This document shows positions 11,790 through 22,155 of a stretch of 64,000 bases of DNA, piece by piece. Made by a program: the position numbers and the translations under genes. How positions within the stretch are numbered: position 1 is the stretch's first letter; the number at the start of each line of letters is the position of its first letter. The DNA comes from Desulfobacteraceae bacterium. Lineage in GTDB: Bacteria; Desulfobacterota; Desulfobacteria; Desulfobacterales; JAABSP01. The DNA is taken from the NCBI GenBank assembly GCA_011390345.1, contig JAABSP010000024.1, positions 1 through 64,000 on the forward strand. Direction: 5' to 3'. The notes beneath the pieces were generated by a model that saw only the letters and a list, made by a program, of their open reading frames with translations, did no database searches and was not told where the DNA came from.

Positions 11790-12230
11790 ATGGAGAAAAT
11801 GAAAAACCAAACAAAACTGGCGTACTGGATGGCTGCCGTGCTTCTGGCTGTCGGCGTGCTGAGTTACACGGCCTTCTCCGCGAAACCGCCCGAAGAACCG
11901 GTGCGGATCATGTTGACGGCCAGCGCGGGGAATGTCCTCTTCACCCACGACACCCATTCCGGCAGCGCGGGCTACGGCGTTGACTGCTTCACCTGCCACC
12001 ACCATCCGGACGGAGACGATTATGCACTCCGATCCTGTGGTGATTGCCACAACCTGCCGGAAGACGGCAGCACCCCCGACATCTGCCTGGAATGCCACGA
12101 CGAGGGAGATTTCGAACTCGACATGGTCCCCTCCAGAGCTGATGCGTTCCATATCCAGTGCGCGGGCTGCCACGAGGAGATGGGCGCAGGTCCCATGAAG
12201 GAAGAGTGCTCCATGTGTCATGTCAGATAA
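11790..12230 (+). CDS. Five-haem periplasmic cytochrome c ahead of the Rnf operon
   Basis: 146 residues with an N-terminal signal or anchor (hydrophobic, about residues 10-30) and five CxxCH motifs: CFTCH, CGDCH, CLECH, CAGCH, CSMCH. Extra histidines (CHHH, FTHDTHS) can supply distal ligands, as in the class III cytochrome c3 family, which usually has four haems. It sits 37 bases before rnfC. Multihaem cytochromes in this position are known in Methanosarcina and some sulfate reducers, where they exchange electrons with Rnf. Two starts are possible, 11790 and 11799; both have purine-rich sites upstream, and the choice does not affect the mature protein. Confidence 0.85.
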   Translation: MEKMKNQTKLAYWMAAVLLAVGVLSYTAFSAKPPEEPVRIMLTASAGNVLFTHDTHSGSAGYGVDCFTCHHHPDGDDYALRSCGDCHNLPEDGSTPDICLECHDEGDFELDMVPSRADAFHIQCAGCHEEMGAGPMKEECSMCHVR

Positions 12231-12267: not shown

Positions 12268-13665
12268 ATGCTAAAAAGATCTTTCTTCGGTATGGCAAAA
12301 CCACGCTTCGAGTACGAATCGATCGATTCGCCCCTGTCGCCCGAGAAGATTCCCCTCCCCAGGAAGGCAACGATCTATTTCAAAAGGCCCTATGACCGGC
12401 GGGATACCCTGCTGCTCAAGATCGGGGATGCGGTGAAGACGGGGCAGAAACTTCTCATCTACGAGGACAGCGACGTATATGCAATCTCTCCGGTGACCGG
12501 AACGGTCGCGGGGATTGCGCCCTTTATCGGGGACTTCGGAGAGTCTTATACCGCACTGACCATCGATGTCTCGGAAACCGACACCTTTGACGAGGAATTC
12601 GGCGGCTCCTTTGAGGAGCCCAATTTCGAGACGGCGCTCAATTACCTCAAGACCCTTCCGGGAAATCCGCCCTTATCTGATTTTGCGGACCCGGACATCC
12701 ACCTGAACACGGTGGTCGTCACCGCGCTGGACAAGGATCTGCTGACCCTGACAAACCAGCACATGGCCGCGGCCAACGTGGATCTGCTCACCCGGGGCGT
12801 CAGCATGCTCAAGCGGATCACCGGGGTCCACAAGGTGGTGGTCGCAATTCCCCAGAAGCTGATCCGCAGAGCCGGGGCCATCGGCGGCGCATCGGGCGTG
12901 GAGCTTCGCCCCATCGGCACCGATTATCCTTCGGCCCTGCCGGCCTTCATCCTGAAAGAGGTGCTGGGACAGGTGATTCCGGCCGGAAAGACGAACCTCG
13001 ACATGGGTGTGAGCCTTTTCGGTGCAGAGGCTCTGACCAACCTGACCCAAGCCTTTGAGGAGAAGCAGATTCCGGTGACCAAACGGCTTACCGTCATCCG
13101 CAAGGACTTGAGCAAGGTTCTGGTGGAGGCGAGGATCGGAACCCCTGTCAAAGAGATCTTCACGGCGCTGAACGTCACCCTGCAGGACATGGACCGCCTT
13201 GTCATCGGCGGCCCCATGACCGGAAACGCGGTCTATTCGGACGAGCATCCGGTGACGCCGGACATGGACGTTCTCATGGTGCAGGACAGCAAAGACGTAT
13301 CATTGGTATCCGATTATCCCTGCATCAACTGCGGCGACTGCAACCGGGTCTGCCCCGCGGACATTGCGGTCAACATGCTGGTCCGCTTCTGCGAGGCCCG
13401 GGAATATGAGGCCGCGGCCGACGAGTACGATCTCCACTCATGCATCGAGTGCGGCCTCTGCACCTTTGTCTGCCCGGCAAAGATCCCCATCTTCCAGTAC
13501 ATCCGGCTTGCAAAGCATGAGCTGGCCAGAAGCGCGATGGAAGTCGAGCTGGCCGGGCCCGAAACAGAGGAGGCGGAAGAAGGCGAACTCGCGGCAAAAG
13601 AGCCCATAGAGACGGCCGAAGCGGAAGAAGCCAAGGAAGAGACAGCTCAGACATCGGAGGAATGA
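12268..13665 (+). CDS. rnfC: RnfC-like subunit lacking the NADH/FMN motifs
   Basis: 465 residues. The N-terminal barrel-like domain, GGPMTG at 314-319 and two [4Fe-4S] motifs (CINCGDCNRVCP at 352, CIECGLCTFVCP at 392) identify RnfC, a peripheral cytoplasmic subunit of the Rnf ion-translocating complex. The usual GGIHPP start, the glycine loop GGAxFPT that binds NADH/FMN, and the ECEP motif are all absent; the corresponding positions read SPLSPEK and VTALDKD. This subunit may therefore not be the NADH site. The tail (from about 435) is an acidic low-complexity stretch rich in E and A. It starts the rnfCDGEAB run; rnfD follows one base after the stop. Confidence 0.88.
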   Translation: MLKRSFFGMAKPRFEYESIDSPLSPEKIPLPRKATIYFKRPYDRRDTLLLKIGDAVKTGQKLLIYEDSDVYAISPVTGTVAGIAPFIGDFGESYTALTIDVSETDTFDEEFGGSFEEPNFETALNYLKTLPGNPPLSDFADPDIHLNTVVVTALDKDLLTLTNQHMAAANVDLLTRGVSMLKRITGVHKVVVAIPQKLIRRAGAIGGASGVELRPIGTDYPSALPAFILKEVLGQVIPAGKTNLDMGVSLFGAEALTNLTQAFEEKQIPVTKRLTVIRKDLSKVLVEARIGTPVKEIFTALNVTLQDMDRLVIGGPMTGNAVYSDEHPVTPDMDVLMVQDSKDVSLVSDYPCINCGDCNRVCPADIAVNMLVRFCEAREYEAAADEYDLHSCIECGLCTFVCPAKIPIFQYIRLAKHELARSAMEVELAGPETEEAEEGELAAKEPIETAEAEEAKEETAQTSEE

Positions 13666-13666
13666 G

Positions 13667-14626
13667 ATGGCGAACCAGAAAAGATTCATCGTCTCCCACG
13701 CGCCATTCTGGCATGATGGGAGCAGCGTAACCGAGCGCAGTTATCATATGATGCTCGCAGCCCTGCCGGCCGTGATCTTCGGGATCATCAAGTACGGCAT
13801 GCCGGCACTGGCAGTGACTGCCCTTTCCGTCTCGTCGGCCATCCTCTGGGAGGCGGCCTTCAGACGGATTTCCAAAGAAAACGAAACCGTAGGAGACGGC
13901 AATGCTGCCCTGATCGGCCTGATCTTTGCCATGCTCCTGCCGGCAACATCCCCCTGGTGGGTCGTTGTCACCGGCACATTTGTGGCCATCGTCATCGGCA
14001 AGGAGATCTTCGGCGGCATCGGAAGCAACCCCTTCAACCCGGTTGCGGTCGCGGCCGCATTCCTGATGCTCTCCTGGTGGAAATATTTCGATTTCAATGC
14101 CGCGCTGGTCCACTATCCCTTCGACCATATGGCGGTCTATCCGCTCTCCGCATTGAAGAACTTCGGCCTCTCCTCGGTGGAGGGGCTGACGCTGGCCGAC
14201 CTGCTCACGGGAAAACAGACCGGCGGAATCGGCACTACCTTCTCGCTGGGTCTGATCATCGGCGGCGTCTATCTGATGCTGCGGGGGATCATCCGGTGGG
14301 AGATCGCGCTCTCCTTTATCGCGGGCGTCTTCATCACCGCGACGATCTTCAAGGCCAACAATCCCGAGCAGTATGCAGGCCCCATGATCCACATCCTGTC
14401 GGGCTACACCCTTTTGGGCGCGTTCTTTCTGGCCACCGATGATTCCTCCTCTCCGGTCAATCTCGTGCCCATGCTCCTCTACGGCCTGATGGGAGGGCTG
14501 ATGGTGGTACTCATCCGCAACATCGGCGCATATATCGACGGCACGATCCTGACCATTCTGCTGATCAATACTGTCAACCCGCTTCTGGACAAGATCCGGC
14601 CCAAGGCGCTGGGAAAGGTGGTGTAA
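13667..14626 (+). CDS. rnfD: RnfD, membrane subunit of the Rnf complex
   Basis: 319 residues, about ten hydrophobic helices, of the NqrB/RnfD family. Conserved family stretches include GDGNAALIGLIFAMLLPA near 77-94 and GGIGSNPFNPVAVAAAF near 116-132. RnfD carries a covalently bound flavin in characterised complexes; around residue 175 this protein reads GLTLADLL, which aligns with the flavinylation site but lacks the full SGAT motif. The next gene, rnfG, starts two bases after the stop. Confidence 0.93.
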   Translation: MANQKRFIVSHAPFWHDGSSVTERSYHMMLAALPAVIFGIIKYGMPALAVTALSVSSAILWEAAFRRISKENETVGDGNAALIGLIFAMLLPATSPWWVVVTGTFVAIVIGKEIFGGIGSNPFNPVAVAAAFLMLSWWKYFDFNAALVHYPFDHMAVYPLSALKNFGLSSVEGLTLADLLTGKQTGGIGTTFSLGLIIGGVYLMLRGIIRWEIALSFIAGVFITATIFKANNPEQYAGPMIHILSGYTLLGAFFLATDDSSSPVNLVPMLLYGLMGGLMVVLIRNIGAYIDGTILTILLINTVNPLLDKIRPKALGKVV

Positions 14627-15227: not shown

Positions 15228-15821
15228 ATGGCAAAATCAATCGGTCAGGAATTTGTAAAGGGTCTATGGGAAGAGGTACCGCCGTTTCGGCTCGTTCTCG
15301 GCCTGTGCCCGGCGCTTGCGGTGACCAAGAGCATGGCCAACGGTATCGGCATGGGGCTGGCGACCACATTCGTCCTCTTTTTCTCCAACCTTCTGGTATC
15401 GACCCTGCGCGGCGTGATTCCGCCCAAGGTGCGGATCGCCTGCTTCATCATCGTCATCGCGACCTTCGTAACTATGGTGGAGCTGCTGATGCAGGCATTC
15501 ACCTATCGGCTCTTTCTCCAGTTGGGTATTTTTATCCCGCTGATCGTGGTCAACTGCGTGGTGCTGGGCCGCTCCGAGGCATTTGCCTATAAGCGGGGGG
15601 TTCTCCACTCCATGGCCGACGGTCTGGGCATCGGGATCGGCTTCACCCTCGCGCTGGGCGCACTTGGCGGGGTCCGGGAGCTGATCGGCTCCGGAACGAT
15701 TCTGGGCCATTCGGTCTTCGGCGCCTCTTTCGAGCCCTTCGCGTTTATGGTGGAGGCCCCGGGTGCATTCGTAGGACTGGGTCTGATGCTCGCCTTCATG
15801 AACCTCGTGGGAAAGAAATAG
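15228..15821 (+). CDS. rnfE: RnfE, membrane subunit of the Rnf complex
   Basis: 197 residues, six hydrophobic helices, of the RnfA/RnfE/NqrDE family. The start (FVKGLWEEVPPFRLVLGLCPALAV) and IPLIVVNCVVLGRSEAFA in mid-protein are typical. With RnfA it forms the core membrane pair that holds an iron-sulfur cluster between conserved cysteines in the characterised complexes. It lies nine bases after rnfG behind AGGAGATAGAG. Confidence 0.94.
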   Translation: MAKSIGQEFVKGLWEEVPPFRLVLGLCPALAVTKSMANGIGMGLATTFVLFFSNLLVSTLRGVIPPKVRIACFIIVIATFVTMVELLMQAFTYRLFLQLGIFIPLIVVNCVVLGRSEAFAYKRGVLHSMADGLGIGIGFTLALGALGGVRELIGSGTILGHSVFGASFEPFAFMVEAPGAFVGLGLMLAFMNLVGKK

Positions 15822-16423: not shown

Positions 16424-18511
16424 ATGATTGAAGCATTGTTTTTCATGCTGCTTCTCGGCGCGGTCTGCGGGCTGGTGCTCAGCTTCGCGTCGAAAATATT
16501 CTACGTCTGGGAAGACCCGCGGATTGCCGAGATAGAGAATTTCCTGGCCGGCGCGAACTGCGGCGGCTGCGGGTTCACCGGCTGTGGGGCCGCGGCCGAG
16601 GCCGTGGTCAAGGGAAAGGCCCTGCCGAATGTCTGCGCGGTGGCCGGCCCCGAAGCAACGACGAGTGTGGCCGCGGTCATGGGCATGGATCCGGGCAGCT
16701 CCGAGCCAAAGATCTCCCGCAACCCCTGCGAGGGCGGGGATCGGGCCGAGGACAAATTCTATTACAACGGCGTCAACTCCTGCCAGGCCGTTGCCGCGAT
16801 GTTCGGCGGCAAGCGGACCTGCGATGTCGGATGCCTGGGATACGGCGACTGCGTCAGCATCTGCCAGTTCAACTCGATCCGGATGGGCGAGCATGGCTAT
16901 CCCGAGATCGACGAGTTCAGTTGCGTCGGCTGCGGCGCGTGCGAGCGGATCTGCCCCAAGGGGATTCTCTCGGTCCAATCGATGTCGGAGCGGCTCCTGG
17001 AGACCAATGTCGAGGACGCGGCGCTTGCCCCCTGCCAGCAGACCTGCCCGGCCGAGATCGACATCCCCGGCTACATCGGCAGCATTCGGGAGGGGAACTA
17101 CGAGGCCGCGGTCCACATCATCCGGGAGCGGAACCCCCTGCTGCTGGCCTGCGGACGGGTCTGCCCCCATCCGTGTGAGGACTACTGCCGCCGCTCCATC
17201 GAGGACGAGGCGGTCTCCATAAACCAGCTCAAGCGGTTTGCTGCCGATTACGAGATGAACTCCGGCAAGCGGCTGCCCATCTCGGTGGCCCCCTCCACCG
17301 GAAAGAAGGTGGCTGTAGTGGGCGGCGGGCCGGCAGGTATCAGTTGCGCCTACTTCCTGCGGCGACTGGGCCATGACGCGGTCATCTTCGAGGCTATGCC
17401 CAAGCTCGGAGGCATGCTGCGCTACGGCATCCCCGAATACCGGCTGCCCAAGAAGACCGTGGACTGGGAGATCCAGGGCATTCTCGATCTCGGGATCGAG
17501 GCCCGCACCAATGTTCAATTCGGAAAGGATTTCACCATCAACGATCTGCTCACCGAGGGCTTTGACGCGATCTTCGTGGGCCAGGGCGCATGGGTGGACT
17601 ACAACTTGAAGATCGACGGCGAGGAGTCCAAGGGCTGCTTCAAGGGCATCGACTTCCTCTCCCGCCTCTCGGGCGGCGAAGAGATTCCCATCGAAGGGAA
17701 GAAGGCTGCGGTGGTCGGCGGCGGCAACAGCGCGATCGACTGCGTGCGGAACCTGCTGAGGTGCGGGGCCGAAGAGGTCTCCATCGTCTACCGAAGGACC
17801 CGCAAGGAGATGCCGGCTAACGAGGTGGAGATCGAGGCCGCGGAGCACGAAGGGGTCAAATTTCTCTTTCTGGCCGCGCCCAACAAGGTGATCACCGATG
17901 ACGACGGCAACGTCACCCACCTGGAATACCTCCAGATGGAACTGGGTGAGCCGGATGCCAGCGGAAGGCGGCGGCCCGTGCCGATCGAGGGCTCCGAGAC
18001 CCAACTGCCGGTTGACATCCTGATCACCGCGATCGGCCAGCAGCCCGACATGGGCTTCAAGGACAGCTCCGACAAGCTCGCGGACCTCCAGATCACCCGG
18101 TGGAACACCTTTGACACCGATCCGGAGACCCTGCAGACCAACATCCCCTACCTCTTCACCGCAGGGGATGCGGCAACCGGGCCTTCTCTGGTGGTGGAGG
18201 CCATCGGCGGGGGCCGGAGAGCGGCCCGCTCCATCCATCAGTATCTGATGGGCGAGGAGGTGAAGGCCCCGGAGAAGTCGCTCTTCAAGCGCCACATCGA
18301 AGAATCGCTCTTCACGGAGGTTCCGGGCGTGGTCAAGAAGAAGAGATCCACCATGACCGAACTCTCCCCGGAGGAGCGGATCAAAAACTTCGAAGAGGTG
18401 GATCAGACCCTGACCGAGGAGGAGGCCCTGGCCGAGGCCAACCGCTGCCTCTCCTGCTGTCGGCTCTGCTATACGCCGGATCTAGACAAGCTGGAGAAGG
18501 ATGTTGCCTGA
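16424..18511 (+). CDS. rnfB: RnfB fused to a GltD/NfnB-like NAD(P)H flavoprotein
   Basis: 695 residues, far longer than the usual 190-330. Residues 1-28 form a membrane helix; NCGGCGFTGC at 46 and two ferredoxin motifs (near 133-147 and CVGCGACERIC at 167) are the RnfB part. From about 200 it continues as a glutamate synthase small-subunit/NfnB-like oxidoreductase: linker cysteines (CQQTCP at 204, CGRVCPHPCEDYC near 243), FAD-binding GGGPAG at 300, a second dinucleotide fold with GGGNSA near 430, TAIGQQPD, and TAGDAATGP near the end. A final cysteine cluster CLSCCRLC lies at 675-682. No stop or shift interrupts the join. The fusion would bring an NAD(P)H/FAD site to the ferredoxin-handling subunit. 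Confidence 0.92.
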   Translation: MIEALFFMLLLGAVCGLVLSFASKIFYVWEDPRIAEIENFLAGANCGGCGFTGCGAAAEAVVKGKALPNVCAVAGPEATTSVAAVMGMDPGSSEPKISRNPCEGGDRAEDKFYYNGVNSCQAVAAMFGGKRTCDVGCLGYGDCVSICQFNSIRMGEHGYPEIDEFSCVGCGACERICPKGILSVQSMSERLLETNVEDAALAPCQQTCPAEIDIPGYIGSIREGNYEAAVHIIRERNPLLLACGRVCPHPCEDYCRRSIEDEAVSINQLKRFAADYEMNSGKRLPISVAPSTGKKVAVVGGGPAGISCAYFLRRLGHDAVIFEAMPKLGGMLRYGIPEYRLPKKTVDWEIQGILDLGIEARTNVQFGKDFTINDLLTEGFDAIFVGQGAWVDYNLKIDGEESKGCFKGIDFLSRLSGGEEIPIEGKKAAVVGGGNSAIDCVRNLLRCGAEEVSIVYRRTRKEMPANEVEIEAAEHEGVKFLFLAAPNKVITDDDGNVTHLEYLQMELGEPDASGRRRPVPIEGSETQLPVDILITAIGQQPDMGFKDSSDKLADLQITRWNTFDTDPETLQTNIPYLFTAGDAATGPSLVVEAIGGGRRAARSIHQYLMGEEVKAPEKSLFKRHIEESLFTEVPGVVKKKRSTMTELSPEERIKNFEEVDQTLTEEEALAEANRCLSCCRLCYTPDLDKLEKDVA

Positions 18512-20577: not shown

Positions 20578-22155
20578 ATGGAGAATCATGCAAAACGGTA
20601 TCGGCAGGAGGTGGAGGAGCTTCTTGCCGACATCGAGATGACAATCCTCGATCTGGAGGAGAATCCGCGGGATACGGATGCGATTCATCGTCTTTTCCGT
20701 GATTTCCATACCATCAAGGGGTCGGGCGCGATGTTCGGATTTGACGAGATCGCGGCATTTACCCACCATGTGGAGGCGGTGCTCGATGTTCTTCGGGAGG
20801 GAAAGATCGGAATCTCCACCCGTCTCATAGACCTGATCCTCTCCTCCCGGGATCATATTCAAGCCCTCATGGAGGCCGGGTCCGAAATCGGAGACGCAAC
20901 ATCCCGGCAGAGCCGGAAGATCATCGATGCCCTCTCCTCTCTGATGCAGGAGGAGTGCCTGCTCCCTGAAGAGGGAGGGGGATTTTCCATAGAAGATCCT
21001 TCGGCTCCGCCGCCACGGAAGGGCGATTCCACCTCCTATCGGATCTCCTTTGCCCCTCACAAAGACATCTTCAAAAGCGGCGTCCGGATACTCCTTCTGC
21101 TTCAGGAGATCCGGGATCTCGGCTCCTGCTTCATTCGCGCGGTCATACAGGATGTCCCCATCCTTGAGGATATCGACCCCGAGCGCTGCTATCTCCGATG
21201 GGAGATCTTTCTGACCACGACCCATCCCCAGAATGCCATCGAGGATGTCTTCATCTTCGTGGCAGAGGAGAGCCTGCTCGAGATTGTCCCGGTGATCCCC
21301 GGGGGCCGGCGCGAGCCCCCCGATGATCTCTTTCCCCGCCTGGGGGAGATCCTCATCGCCCGTGGGGACGCCTCTCCTGAGGAGGTCGGCCGCATCCTCC
21401 ACGAATTCCAGGAGAGCATCGGCGGCGCGTTTGTCCGATCGGGCATCGTGGCTCCTGACCGGCTCCGATCGGCCCGGGATCTTCAACGGGGCGTGAGCAA
21501 ATGCCAGAAGCAGAAGGAAAAGAGTTCCATCCGGATCTCCTCTGAGAAGCTGGATCGGCTCATCAATCTCGTGGGAGAGCTGATCATCAATCAGTCCCAT
21601 CTGACCCGGAGCATCTATGAGATCGAAAATCTTCTGGAGGAGGAGGAGTCTCGTTCAGAGCCAGCGGAGGTGATTCTGCAGGGGTGGAAGGATATTTTGA
21701 AGCCGGTGGAGAACCTGGAACGGCTGACGGACTCCTTCCGGGACTGCGCACTGGAGATGCGGATGATCCCCATCGGAACGATCTTCGGGGGCTTTCGACG
21801 GCTGGTGCGGGACCTCTGCGGAGAGCTGGGCAATACTGTGGATCTGGTGACGGAGGGGGCCGAGACCGCGCTGGACAAGACGGTGATCGAACGGATCAAT
21901 GACCCGCTGATGCACCTGATCCGCAACTGCGTCTCCCACGGCATCCGCTCCCCCGAGGTTCGGGAGAGATTCGGAAAGAGCCGGCGGGGAAAGATTCTGC
22001 TCTGCGCGGAGCAGTTGGGTTCGACGGTCTCCATCACCATCGAGGATGACGGCATGGGAATGGACCCGGCCCTTATCCGGAAAAAGGCCGTGGAAAAGGG
22101 GCTGATCCGGAGCACCCAAAGAGACGATATCCCTCTTTTTTCCCGCAGCGGATAA
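20578..22155 (+). CDS. CheA-like kinase, C-terminally truncated
   Basis: 525 residues. An HPt domain carries the phosphorylatable histidine in FHTIKGSG (H44). There is a poorly conserved middle region of about 250 residues, then the CheA dimerisation segment (SEKLDRLINLVGELII near 320) and the start of the catalytic domain with its N box (HLIRNCVSHGI) and DDGMGMDP near 489. The protein stops at LFSRSG, where CheA kinases normally continue into the F box, the GRGVGMD box and the CheW-like domain. Neither other forward frame contains the missing part. ATP binding and receptor coupling are therefore doubtful. It may be a degraded gene or a phosphorelay HPt protein. Start overlaps closely with the preceding kinase gene. 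Confidence 0.8.
   Translation: MENHAKRYRQEVEELLADIEMTILDLEENPRDTDAIHRLFRDFHTIKGSGAMFGFDEIAAFTHHVEAVLDVLREGKIGISTRLIDLILSSRDHIQALMEAGSEIGDATSRQSRKIIDALSSLMQEECLLPEEGGGFSIEDPSAPPPRKGDSTSYRISFAPHKDIFKSGVRILLLLQEIRDLGSCFIRAVIQDVPILEDIDPERCYLRWEIFLTTTHPQNAIEDVFIFVAEESLLEIVPVIPGGRREPPDDLFPRLGEILIARGDASPEEVGRILHEFQESIGGAFVRSGIVAPDRLRSARDLQRGVSKCQKQKEKSSIRISSEKLDRLINLVGELIINQSHLTRSIYEIENLLEEEESRSEPAEVILQGWKDILKPVENLERLTDSFRDCALEMRMIPIGTIFGGFRRLVRDLCGELGNTVDLVTEGAETALDKTVIERINDPLMHLIRNCVSHGIRSPEVRERFGKSRRGKILLCAEQLGSTVSITIEDDGMGMDPALIRKKAVEKGLIRSTQRDDIPLFSRSG

What the first reader, a model, noticed from the sequence alone, without database searches (positions are those of the whole stretch)
16424..18511. 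RnfB fused to a complete NAD(P)H-dependent flavoprotein
Seen: one uninterrupted 695-codon frame joins a normal RnfB (membrane helix, NCGGCG, ferredoxin motifs) to a GltD/NfnB-like module with FAD and NAD(P) loops and an extra C-terminal cysteine cluster. Known: RnfB normally only handles ferredoxin electrons, and the GltD-type subunit normally pairs with another protein (for example NfnA, GltB). Inferred: ferredoxin and a pyridine nucleotide meet on the same subunit, perhaps allowing bifurcation- or Nfn-like chemistry at the membrane.
Basis: partly seen in the sequence, partly recalled or inferred. Interest (0 to 1): 0.8.

Follow-up and report, generated by a model that had tools for sequence, protein, structure and literature searches.

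The report
Rnf ion pump with NADPH head
A sulfate-reducer-type bacterium carries a version of the Rnf membrane ion pump in which the nicotinamide-binding site has left its usual subunit and reappears, as an attached flavoprotein, on the ferredoxin-binding subunit; the fusion is already described in print, but how it works has not been tested.

Summary
Window 16424-18511 (+) is one 695-codon gene, last of a cytochrome c-rnfCDGEA-rnfB operon, joining RnfB (1-191) to a GltD-like flavoprotein (196-683). It is no assembly error: a 79%-identical single-frame copy lies in another genus of the family, and near-full-length relatives (>=51%) were listed in 28 of 394 genomes of the phylum. Two corrections. 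The 'extra' C-terminal cysteines are the usual N-terminal piece of the GltD/NfnB iron-sulfur domain, moved to the C terminus, as in StnC/NfnABC. And the flavin is of StnC class, with a lysine (K270) where bifurcating NfnB has glutamate; StnC is reported as non-bifurcating, so Nfn-like bifurcation is unlikely. The fusion is known: large RnfB of the 'Tol2-type' or 'Rnf2' complex. Added here: RnfC beside fused RnfB lacks the FMN/NADH motif in 41 of 41 operons but keeps both [4Fe-4S] motifs, so the nucleotide site seems to have moved from RnfC to RnfB, an Nqr-like rewiring. A second fused paralogue lacks the NAD(P) motif in 40 of 40 copies and lies near NuoE/NuoF in 11 of 40. Eighteen genomes chosen for holding both heads have one core of this type each, suggesting exchangeable electron-input heads.

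The parts
16424..18511 (+). fused rnfB: RnfB plus StnC/GltD-type NAD(P)H-FAD module, 695 aa (type 1 head)
16427..16498 (+). N-terminal membrane helix of RnfB (residues 2-25)
   Evidence: AlphaFold model helix 2-25
16544..16639 (+). RnfB FeS domain with NCGGCG (residues 41-72)
   Evidence: Pfam FeS PF04060
16820..16957 (+). two ferredoxin-type [4Fe-4S] motifs of RnfB (residues 133-178)
   Evidence: Pfam Fer4 models; cysteines invariant
17027..17263 (+). GltD iron-sulfur domain, main part, with lysine K270 (residues 202-280)
   Evidence: Pfam Fer4_20 best stretch covers profile positions 30-111 only; K270 aligns with StnC K170
17303..17443 (+). FAD-binding motifs GGGPAG and GGMLRYGIPEYRLP (residues 294-340)
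17702..17926 (+). NAD(P)-binding Rossmann segment GGGNSA and YRRTRKEMPA (residues 427-501)
   Evidence: Pfam Pyr_redox
18155..18223 (+). second FAD motif, AGD (residues 578-600)
   Evidence: aligns with residues 2-42 of NfnB 4ylf_B and 7-50 of own NfnB
11790..12230 (+). multihaem class III cytochrome c, five CxxCH; start inferred (open frame from 11679)
12268..13665 (+). rnfC, without the FMN/NADH motif and without an SLBB match, keeping two [4Fe-4S] motifs
13667..14626 (+). rnfD
   Evidence: TIGR01946 233 bits
14628..15218 (+). rnfG with SGAT motif
15228..15821 (+). rnfE
   Evidence: TIGR01948 241 bits
15833..16405 (+). rnfA
   Evidence: TIGR01943 249.5 bits

Best explanation
The gene encodes the electron-input subunit of an Rnf2 (Tol2-type) ion pump. 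RnfB keeps its membrane helix, FeS domain and two ferredoxin motifs, and carries a StnC-class NADPH dehydrogenase at its C terminus. Shown by sequence: intact FAD and NAD(P) motifs, GltD-type cluster cysteines (part of them on the permuted C-terminal segment), the StnC-type lysine, absence of the FMN/NADH motif in RnfC, and recognisable rnfD, G, E and A with their cofactor motifs. Inferred: NADPH gives a hydride to FAD; single electrons pass without bifurcation through the two GltD clusters into the RnfB clusters, where ferredoxin electrons also enter; they then cross RnfA/E, RnfG and RnfD with Na+ or H+ transport. They leave through the RnfC clusters or the operon's multihaem cytochrome c to an acceptor not yet known. 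This resembles Nqr, where the nucleotide site likewise sits on the input subunit (NqrF) and the RnfC homologue NqrA has lost it.
For: FAD/NAD(P) key residues invariant in 20 of 20 aligned type 1 proteins; NAD(P) motif kept in 50 of 51 type 1 rows. RnfC motif absent in 41 of 41 fused-head operons, against presence in 30 of 30 best-scoring RnfC of the phylum search and 15 of 18 RnfC beside an RnfB read as short. Both RnfC [4Fe-4S] motifs kept in 40 of 40 and in the window. The only full-length RnfC match of this genome is the window's. K270 = StnC K170, invariant in 29 of 29 rows. Model residues 197-682 superpose on NfnABC/StnC at Z 37-39. Cytochrome gene upstream of rnfC in 23 of 40 rows. Rnf path and Nqr comparison from PMC11889175 and PMC4014512 (passages).
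Against: No biochemistry was found. The acceptor is unknown, and no cytochrome gene was found upstream of rnfC in 17 of 40 rows (2 of these held under 400 bases upstream, and in L220 a cytochrome was found by BLAST). RnfC keeps its clusters, unlike NqrA, so electrons may still end there. RnfC of seven fused-head operons (G052, G151, G172, G015, G321, G252, G122; 282-321 bits) passes the family cut-off although the motif is absent. Type 2 heads sit in some rnf operons without a NAD(P) motif, so a nucleotide site is not indispensable to such complexes. NADPH rather than NADH is inferred from the class only. PMC11887813 describes Rnf2 as linking the NADH, ferredoxin and, with Nfn, NADP pools (passages).
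Confidence: 0.5

Rival explanations
1. Terminal-site relocation. Electrons still run ferredoxin -> RnfB -> membrane -> RnfC clusters, but instead of RnfC's lost FMN they pass to the flavoprotein tethered to neighbouring RnfB, which reduces NADP+. The complex is then an ion-pumping ferredoxin:NADP+ oxidoreductase.
For: RnfC keeps both [4Fe-4S] motifs in 40 of 40 and in the window although the FMN motif is absent. In A. woodii Rnf, RnfB and RnfC touch (PMC11889175, passages).
Against: The GltD cysteines follow the RnfB cysteines after a linker of only 26 residues (C177 to C204), so a non-pumping short circuit would be expected. Type 2 heads without NAD(P) motif also pair with cluster-bearing RnfC.
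Confidence: 0.2
2. Non-pumping ferredoxin-NADP+ reductase on the membrane. The head simply equilibrates ferredoxin and NADPH, and the pump uses whichever is reduced.
For: Adjacent clusters and FAD on one chain; type 1 genes with no rnf gene held nearby, 15 of 51 rows, some at contig ends.
Against: 36 of 51 type 1 rows lie among rnf genes, and the cysteines of the FeS domain used for docking are invariant.
Confidence: 0.15
3. Nfn-like bifurcation or confurcation at the RnfB-bound FAD, the high-potential electron going into the Rnf core and the low-potential one to ferredoxin.
For: Fold and NADPH motifs are shared with NfnB; the arginine that I equate with NfnB R201 is kept (R340). In G036 and G349 nfnA and nfnB genes directly follow rnfA.
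Against: Lysine instead of the NfnB glutamate ligand in 29 of 29 rows, as in StnC, whose flavin is reported as non-bifurcating although it keeps that arginine (PMC10482914, passages). No NfnA gene in the operon.
Confidence: 0.1
4. Artefact or decayed fusion: two genes joined by a sequencing error, or a flavoprotein without function.
For: None found for this gene; two relatives are broken (Salidesulfovibrio L214 in three frames; G225 with a 77-residue remnant).
Against: Same frame in many independent genomes; binding residues invariant. D. multivorans Rnf2 subunits were detected in the membrane-enriched fraction (PMC5109826, passages).
Confidence: 0.01

Closest known systems
Tol2-type Rnf / Rnf2 of Desulfobacteraceae (Desulfobacula toluolica, Desulfococcus multivorans, others; PMC5109826, PMC11887813)
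   Same: RnfB of about 700 aa with NAD-binding sites, RnfC lacking NADH and SLBB domains, cytochrome gene in the cluster. G144, searched here, has exactly the published D. multivorans length (4,455,399 bp), and its head is 69% identical.
   Different: A different lineage of the same order; otherwise the same kind.
StnC of StnABC (8oh5) and the large subunits of NfnABC (9bov, 9n5u)
   Same: GltD module with the permuted C-terminal RCLxC segment and the lysine; Z 38-39 over about 470 residues.
   Different: No NuoG-like or molybdopterin-like domain; fused to RnfB instead; no NuoE/NuoF partner genes in the window operon.
NfnB (4ylf, 5jca)
   Same: GltD fold, FAD and NADPH motifs.
   Different: Unpermuted order, glutamate ligand, NfnA partner, bifurcating.
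Canonical Rnf (A. woodii, C. tetanomorphum)
   Same: rnfCDGEA core, RnfB helix and ferredoxin domain.
   Different: Canonical RnfB has no flavoprotein, and RnfC binds FMN and NADH.
Na+-NQR
   Same: Nucleotide-FAD site on the input subunit; RnfC homologue without nucleotide site.
   Different: NqrF is an unrelated FNR-type module without RnfB's polyferredoxin; NqrA also lost its clusters (PMC4014512, passages).

Membership tests
Rnf complex, subunit RnfB | membrane helix, NCGGCG FeS domain and ferredoxin motifs, gene in an rnfCDGEA operon | tested here: met
Canonical (Rnf1-type) Rnf | RnfC with FMN/NADH motif | tested here: not met
   177 bits against cut-off 246; Complex1_51K 27.7 bits under its cut-off of 31.2 and without its first 27 positions, no SLBB match; motif absent
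Tol2-type / Rnf2 complex | RnfB of about 700 aa with NAD(P) sites | tested here: met
   695 aa
Tol2-type / Rnf2 complex | RnfC without NADH and SLBB domains | tested here: met
Tol2-type / Rnf2 complex | ion pumping and donor/acceptor pair | not testable with these tools
   needs biochemistry
StnC-class GltD module | lysine ligand at the cluster next to FAD (StnC K170) | tested here: met
   K270 by ungapped alignment, invariant in 29 of 29 rows
StnC-class GltD module | N-terminal cysteine segment displaced to the C terminus | tested here: met
StnABC transhydrogenase | NuoE/NuoF-like partner genes (StnAB) | tested here: not met
   none in the window operon; they lie beside the type 2 paralogue instead
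NfnAB | NfnA partner and glutamate ligand | tested here: not met
   separate NfnA-NfnB pair at L007
Na+-NQR | FNR-type NqrF subunit | tested here: not met
   module is GltD-type

The most novel reading that the evidence does not exclude
One Rnf2 membrane core is served by two exchangeable RnfB heads. The type 1 head (this gene) brings electrons from NADPH. The type 2 head, whose NAD(P) motif is gone, brings electrons from NADH through a docked NuoE/NuoF (HydBC/StnAB-like, possibly bifurcating) module. The pump would thus switch its nucleotide pool by swapping RnfB, an independent re-invention of the Nqr layout.
Probability: 0.3. Interest if true: 0.75.

Novelty: new member of a known kind. Interest (0 to 1): 0.5.

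Why it matters
Rnf2 is reported as part of the core genome of Desulfobacteraceae, and as abundant and constitutive in all six strains studied (PMC11887813, passages), yet PMC5109826 (passages) says that its mode of action awaits experimental verification. The apparent move of the nucleotide site from RnfC to RnfB, and the StnC-type lysine, turn this into specific tests (NADPH or NADH, bifurcating or not, with or without RnfC). They bear on how complete-oxidising sulfate reducers feed NADPH and ferredoxin electrons into respiration. The parallel with the proposed origin of Nqr gives a second case for studying how a ferredoxin pump becomes a nicotinamide pump.

Tried and rejected
Artefact of assembly: rejected. 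Extra C-terminal cluster: rejected in favour of permutation. Obligatory cytochrome partner: not supported, 23 of 40 rows. Exclusive pairing of degenerate RnfC with fused RnfB: not supported; a short RnfB also occurs with low-scoring RnfC, for example on the same contig in G069, G282, G175, G056, G070, G332 and G324 (motifs not examined there), and with a motif-less RnfC in L224 and L228. My first FMN pattern was too strict and missed canonical RnfC; only the counts are used. On re-check one core that I had counted as free of rnfB, G225 (L256), proved to hold a 77-residue RnfB remnant (69% identity) behind rnfA; the count is corrected from seven to six. The viral scan found no relative. The phylum tables are truncated and score few candidates per genome, so their counts are lower bounds. 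Papers: I saw only passages of those cited (PMC5109826, PMC11887813, PMC10482914, PMC11889175, PMC4014512; also looked at, without use for the claims, PMC10553843, PMC4215793, PMC9012536, PMC12174285, PMC9304861); other hits were seen in search listings only; the original D. toluolica paper was not seen. The FMN motif, the cluster-ligand assignments, the R340-R201 equivalence and the NADPH preference rest partly on recalled knowledge. The passages seen of the two papers that describe Rnf2 give no StnC or NuoEF link. The ten searches brought up, in listings and passages seen, no paper on two heads or on an RnfB-NuoEF partnership; one search listed no paper with both RnfB and StnC among the 11 it returned. 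I did not test the 902-aa frame on the opposite strand.

Full report
OBSERVATION. The frame 16424-18511 (+) is open for 695 codons. It closes an operon of a five-haem class III cytochrome c, rnfC, rnfD, rnfG, rnfE and rnfA, each matched by its family model; rnfC scores under its cut-off. Residues 1-191 match RnfB models and 196-683 match GltD-like NAD(P)-binding models. The opposite strand carries an uninterrupted 902-aa frame over much of the gene, which I did not test further. Of the four genomes of the family searched, all four hold a full-length fusion; G003, another genus, holds a copy 79% identical in a single frame, while the best matches of G001 and G002 are type 2 paralogues at 40-41%. 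A chance joining of two genes is excluded.

PERMUTED DOMAIN. The best Pfam Fer4_20 stretch matches only from profile position 30, whereas this genome's separate NfnB matches from position 1. The missing piece is at the C terminus: residues 638-678 align with residues 2-42 of T. maritima NfnB and with residues 7-50 of the own NfnB, score 99 against a best of 68 in 1000 shuffles. The AlphaFold model (mean pLDDT 81, pTM 0.80) superposes through residues 681-683 on NfnABC and StnC chains (Z 36.8-39.4, rmsd 2.6-3.2, 468-471 residues), but only to 610-614 on NfnB chains (Z 26.4-28.6, 393-410 residues).

CLASS OF FLAVIN. In StnC the cluster next to FAD is coordinated by K170, a glutamate in NfnB, and the FAD is described as non-bifurcating (PMC10482914, passages). 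P0001 K270 aligns with StnC K170 without a gap (offset 100). It is invariant in 20 type 1 proteins and in 29 mixed type 1 and type 2 proteins, while the own NfnB has LERF. Linear NADPH oxidation is the better reading. StnC keeps the arginine that favours bifurcation in NfnB, so R340 does not decide.

SITE RELOCATION. This genome has one full-length RnfC match, 177 bits against a cut-off of 246. It lacks the start of the FMN-binding domain and any SLBB match. I aligned RnfC from operons with fused RnfB and from controls. The pattern G.GG[AS].[FYL]P is absent in 41 of 41 fused-head operons (33 type 1 with the window, 8 type 2). It is present in 30 of 30 of the best-scoring RnfC of the phylum search, and in 15 of 18 RnfC beside an RnfB read as short. 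Of the three exceptions, L223 is an RnfB cut by the contig end (62% identical to the window's), and L224 and L228 are real short RnfBs of 269 and 266 aa. Both [4Fe-4S] motifs of RnfC are kept in 40 of 40 and in the window. So loss of the RnfC site does not require the fusion, but among the operons examined the fusion was never found with an intact RnfC motif. By score alone the picture is less sharp: RnfC of seven fused-head operons passes the family cut-off at 282-321 bits, although the motif is absent there too.

TWO PARALOGUES. A tree of 91 fused proteins separates type 1 (50 rows, plus L055 at the base of the other side) from type 2 (40 rows). By a motif pattern, NAD(P) motifs are intact in 50 of 51 type 1 rows (exception L187, a long branch) and absent in 40 of 40 type 2 rows; CGGCG or CGACG is present in all 91, and RC[LMV]xC in 90, L055 being cut by the contig end. 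The own type 2 gene lies on another contig behind NuoE and NuoF and before RseC; its NuoF has 2Fe-2S, FMN-binding, SLBB, NADH_4Fe-4S and C-terminal ferredoxin domains, the set I associate with HydB/StnB. NuoE/F genes were seen near 11 of 40 type 2 rows, rnf genes near 9 (2 rows have both), and neither near 22, several of these with short flanks. 36 of 51 type 1 rows lie among rnf genes and 15 do not, some of these at contig ends.

HEADS AND CORES. In 18 genomes chosen because they hold both types (assigned by identity; motifs were examined only for those in the tree), each has exactly two fused RnfBs, G380's second being atypical. Each has one rnfD that is neither beside a short RnfB nor weak; further rnfD hits are canonical ones beside a short RnfB (G144, G298, G299, G380) or five weak hits of 164-189 bits that I take for NqrB. 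Of 11 further rnf cores fetched, six run past rnfA with no rnfB (L246, L247, L248, L250, L251, L253). L256 holds a 77-residue RnfB remnant behind rnfA, three are cut by the contig end (L249, L254, L255) and L252 has only 763 bases beyond. In G205, G036 and G349 the only RnfBs found are the two unlinked fused ones. In G036 and G349 nfnA and nfnB follow rnfA. This is the basis of the exchangeable-heads reading, which remains an inference.

DISTRIBUTION. Near-full-length type 1 (>=51% identity) was listed in 28 of 394 genomes of the phylum, 11 of the 20 of the same order (truncated list; the G096 match holds one TGA). Named carriers include Desulfosarcina alkanivorans, Desulfobacula, Desulfocarbo indianensis, Pseudodesulfovibrio, Desulfovibrio, Salidesulfovibrio brasiliensis (frame broken in that contig), Desulfopila aestuarii (43%) and two bacteria outside these groups (UBP15_UBA6099, ADurb.Bin236); type 2 appears in an Aminicenantes MAG.

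PRIOR ART. PMC5109826 (passages) describes the Tol2-type Rnf with RnfB of about 700 aa, NAD-binding sites and RnfC without NADH and SLBB domains, and its proteins in D. multivorans; G144 has that genome's exact length. PMC11887813 (passages) places Rnf2 in the core genome and notes different RnfBC domains. The fusion is therefore known. In the listings and passages of the ten searches named under Tried and rejected I saw nothing on the permutation or lysine in RnfB, the NuoEF-linked paralogue or the one-core two-heads pattern.

MECHANISM. The A. woodii Rnf path runs RnfB, RnfA/E, RnfG, RnfD, RnfC (PMC11889175, passages). Nqr is proposed to have arisen when RnfB was replaced by an NADH-FAD module and RnfC lost its sites (PMC4014512, passages). 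Here RnfB is kept and gains such a module while RnfC loses only its flavin site. I commit to NADPH (with ferredoxin) as input at RnfB at 0.5, with terminal-site relocation (0.2), simple ferredoxin-NADP+ exchange (0.15) and bifurcation (0.1) as rivals.

Noticed in passing
L023:6214-11888 (G000:C13): Gene run NuoE, HydB/StnB-like NuoF, RnfB-GltD fusion without NAD(P) motif (type 2), RseC: looks like a membrane-anchored relative of Stn/HydBC systems.
   Followed up: partly
L246:3055-6952 and L247:6131-9933: rnfE-rnfA followed directly by nfnA and nfnB genes instead of rnfB (genomes G349 and G036).
   Followed up: partly
L256:7890-8114: Behind rnfA of G225 only the first 77 residues of an RnfB (69% identical to the window's) remain.
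   Followed up: no
L094:7998-9794, L095:2961-4757: 599-aa type 1 relatives lacking the membrane helix and NCGGCG domain, beside a 265-280 aa RnfC-like protein; perhaps a soluble derivative.
   Followed up: no
L181 and L182: Type 1 rnf operon in UBP15/ADurb.Bin236 MAGs with a 539-aa frame of 22 CxxCH motifs on the same locus.
   Followed up: no
L209: Aminicenantes MAG with cytochrome, rnfCDGEA, type 2 head, NuoE and a 1022-aa NuoF in one run of genes.
   Followed up: partly
window 20578-22155: CheA-like frame that appears to end inside its ATPase domain, followed at once by another frame from 22158.
   Followed up: no
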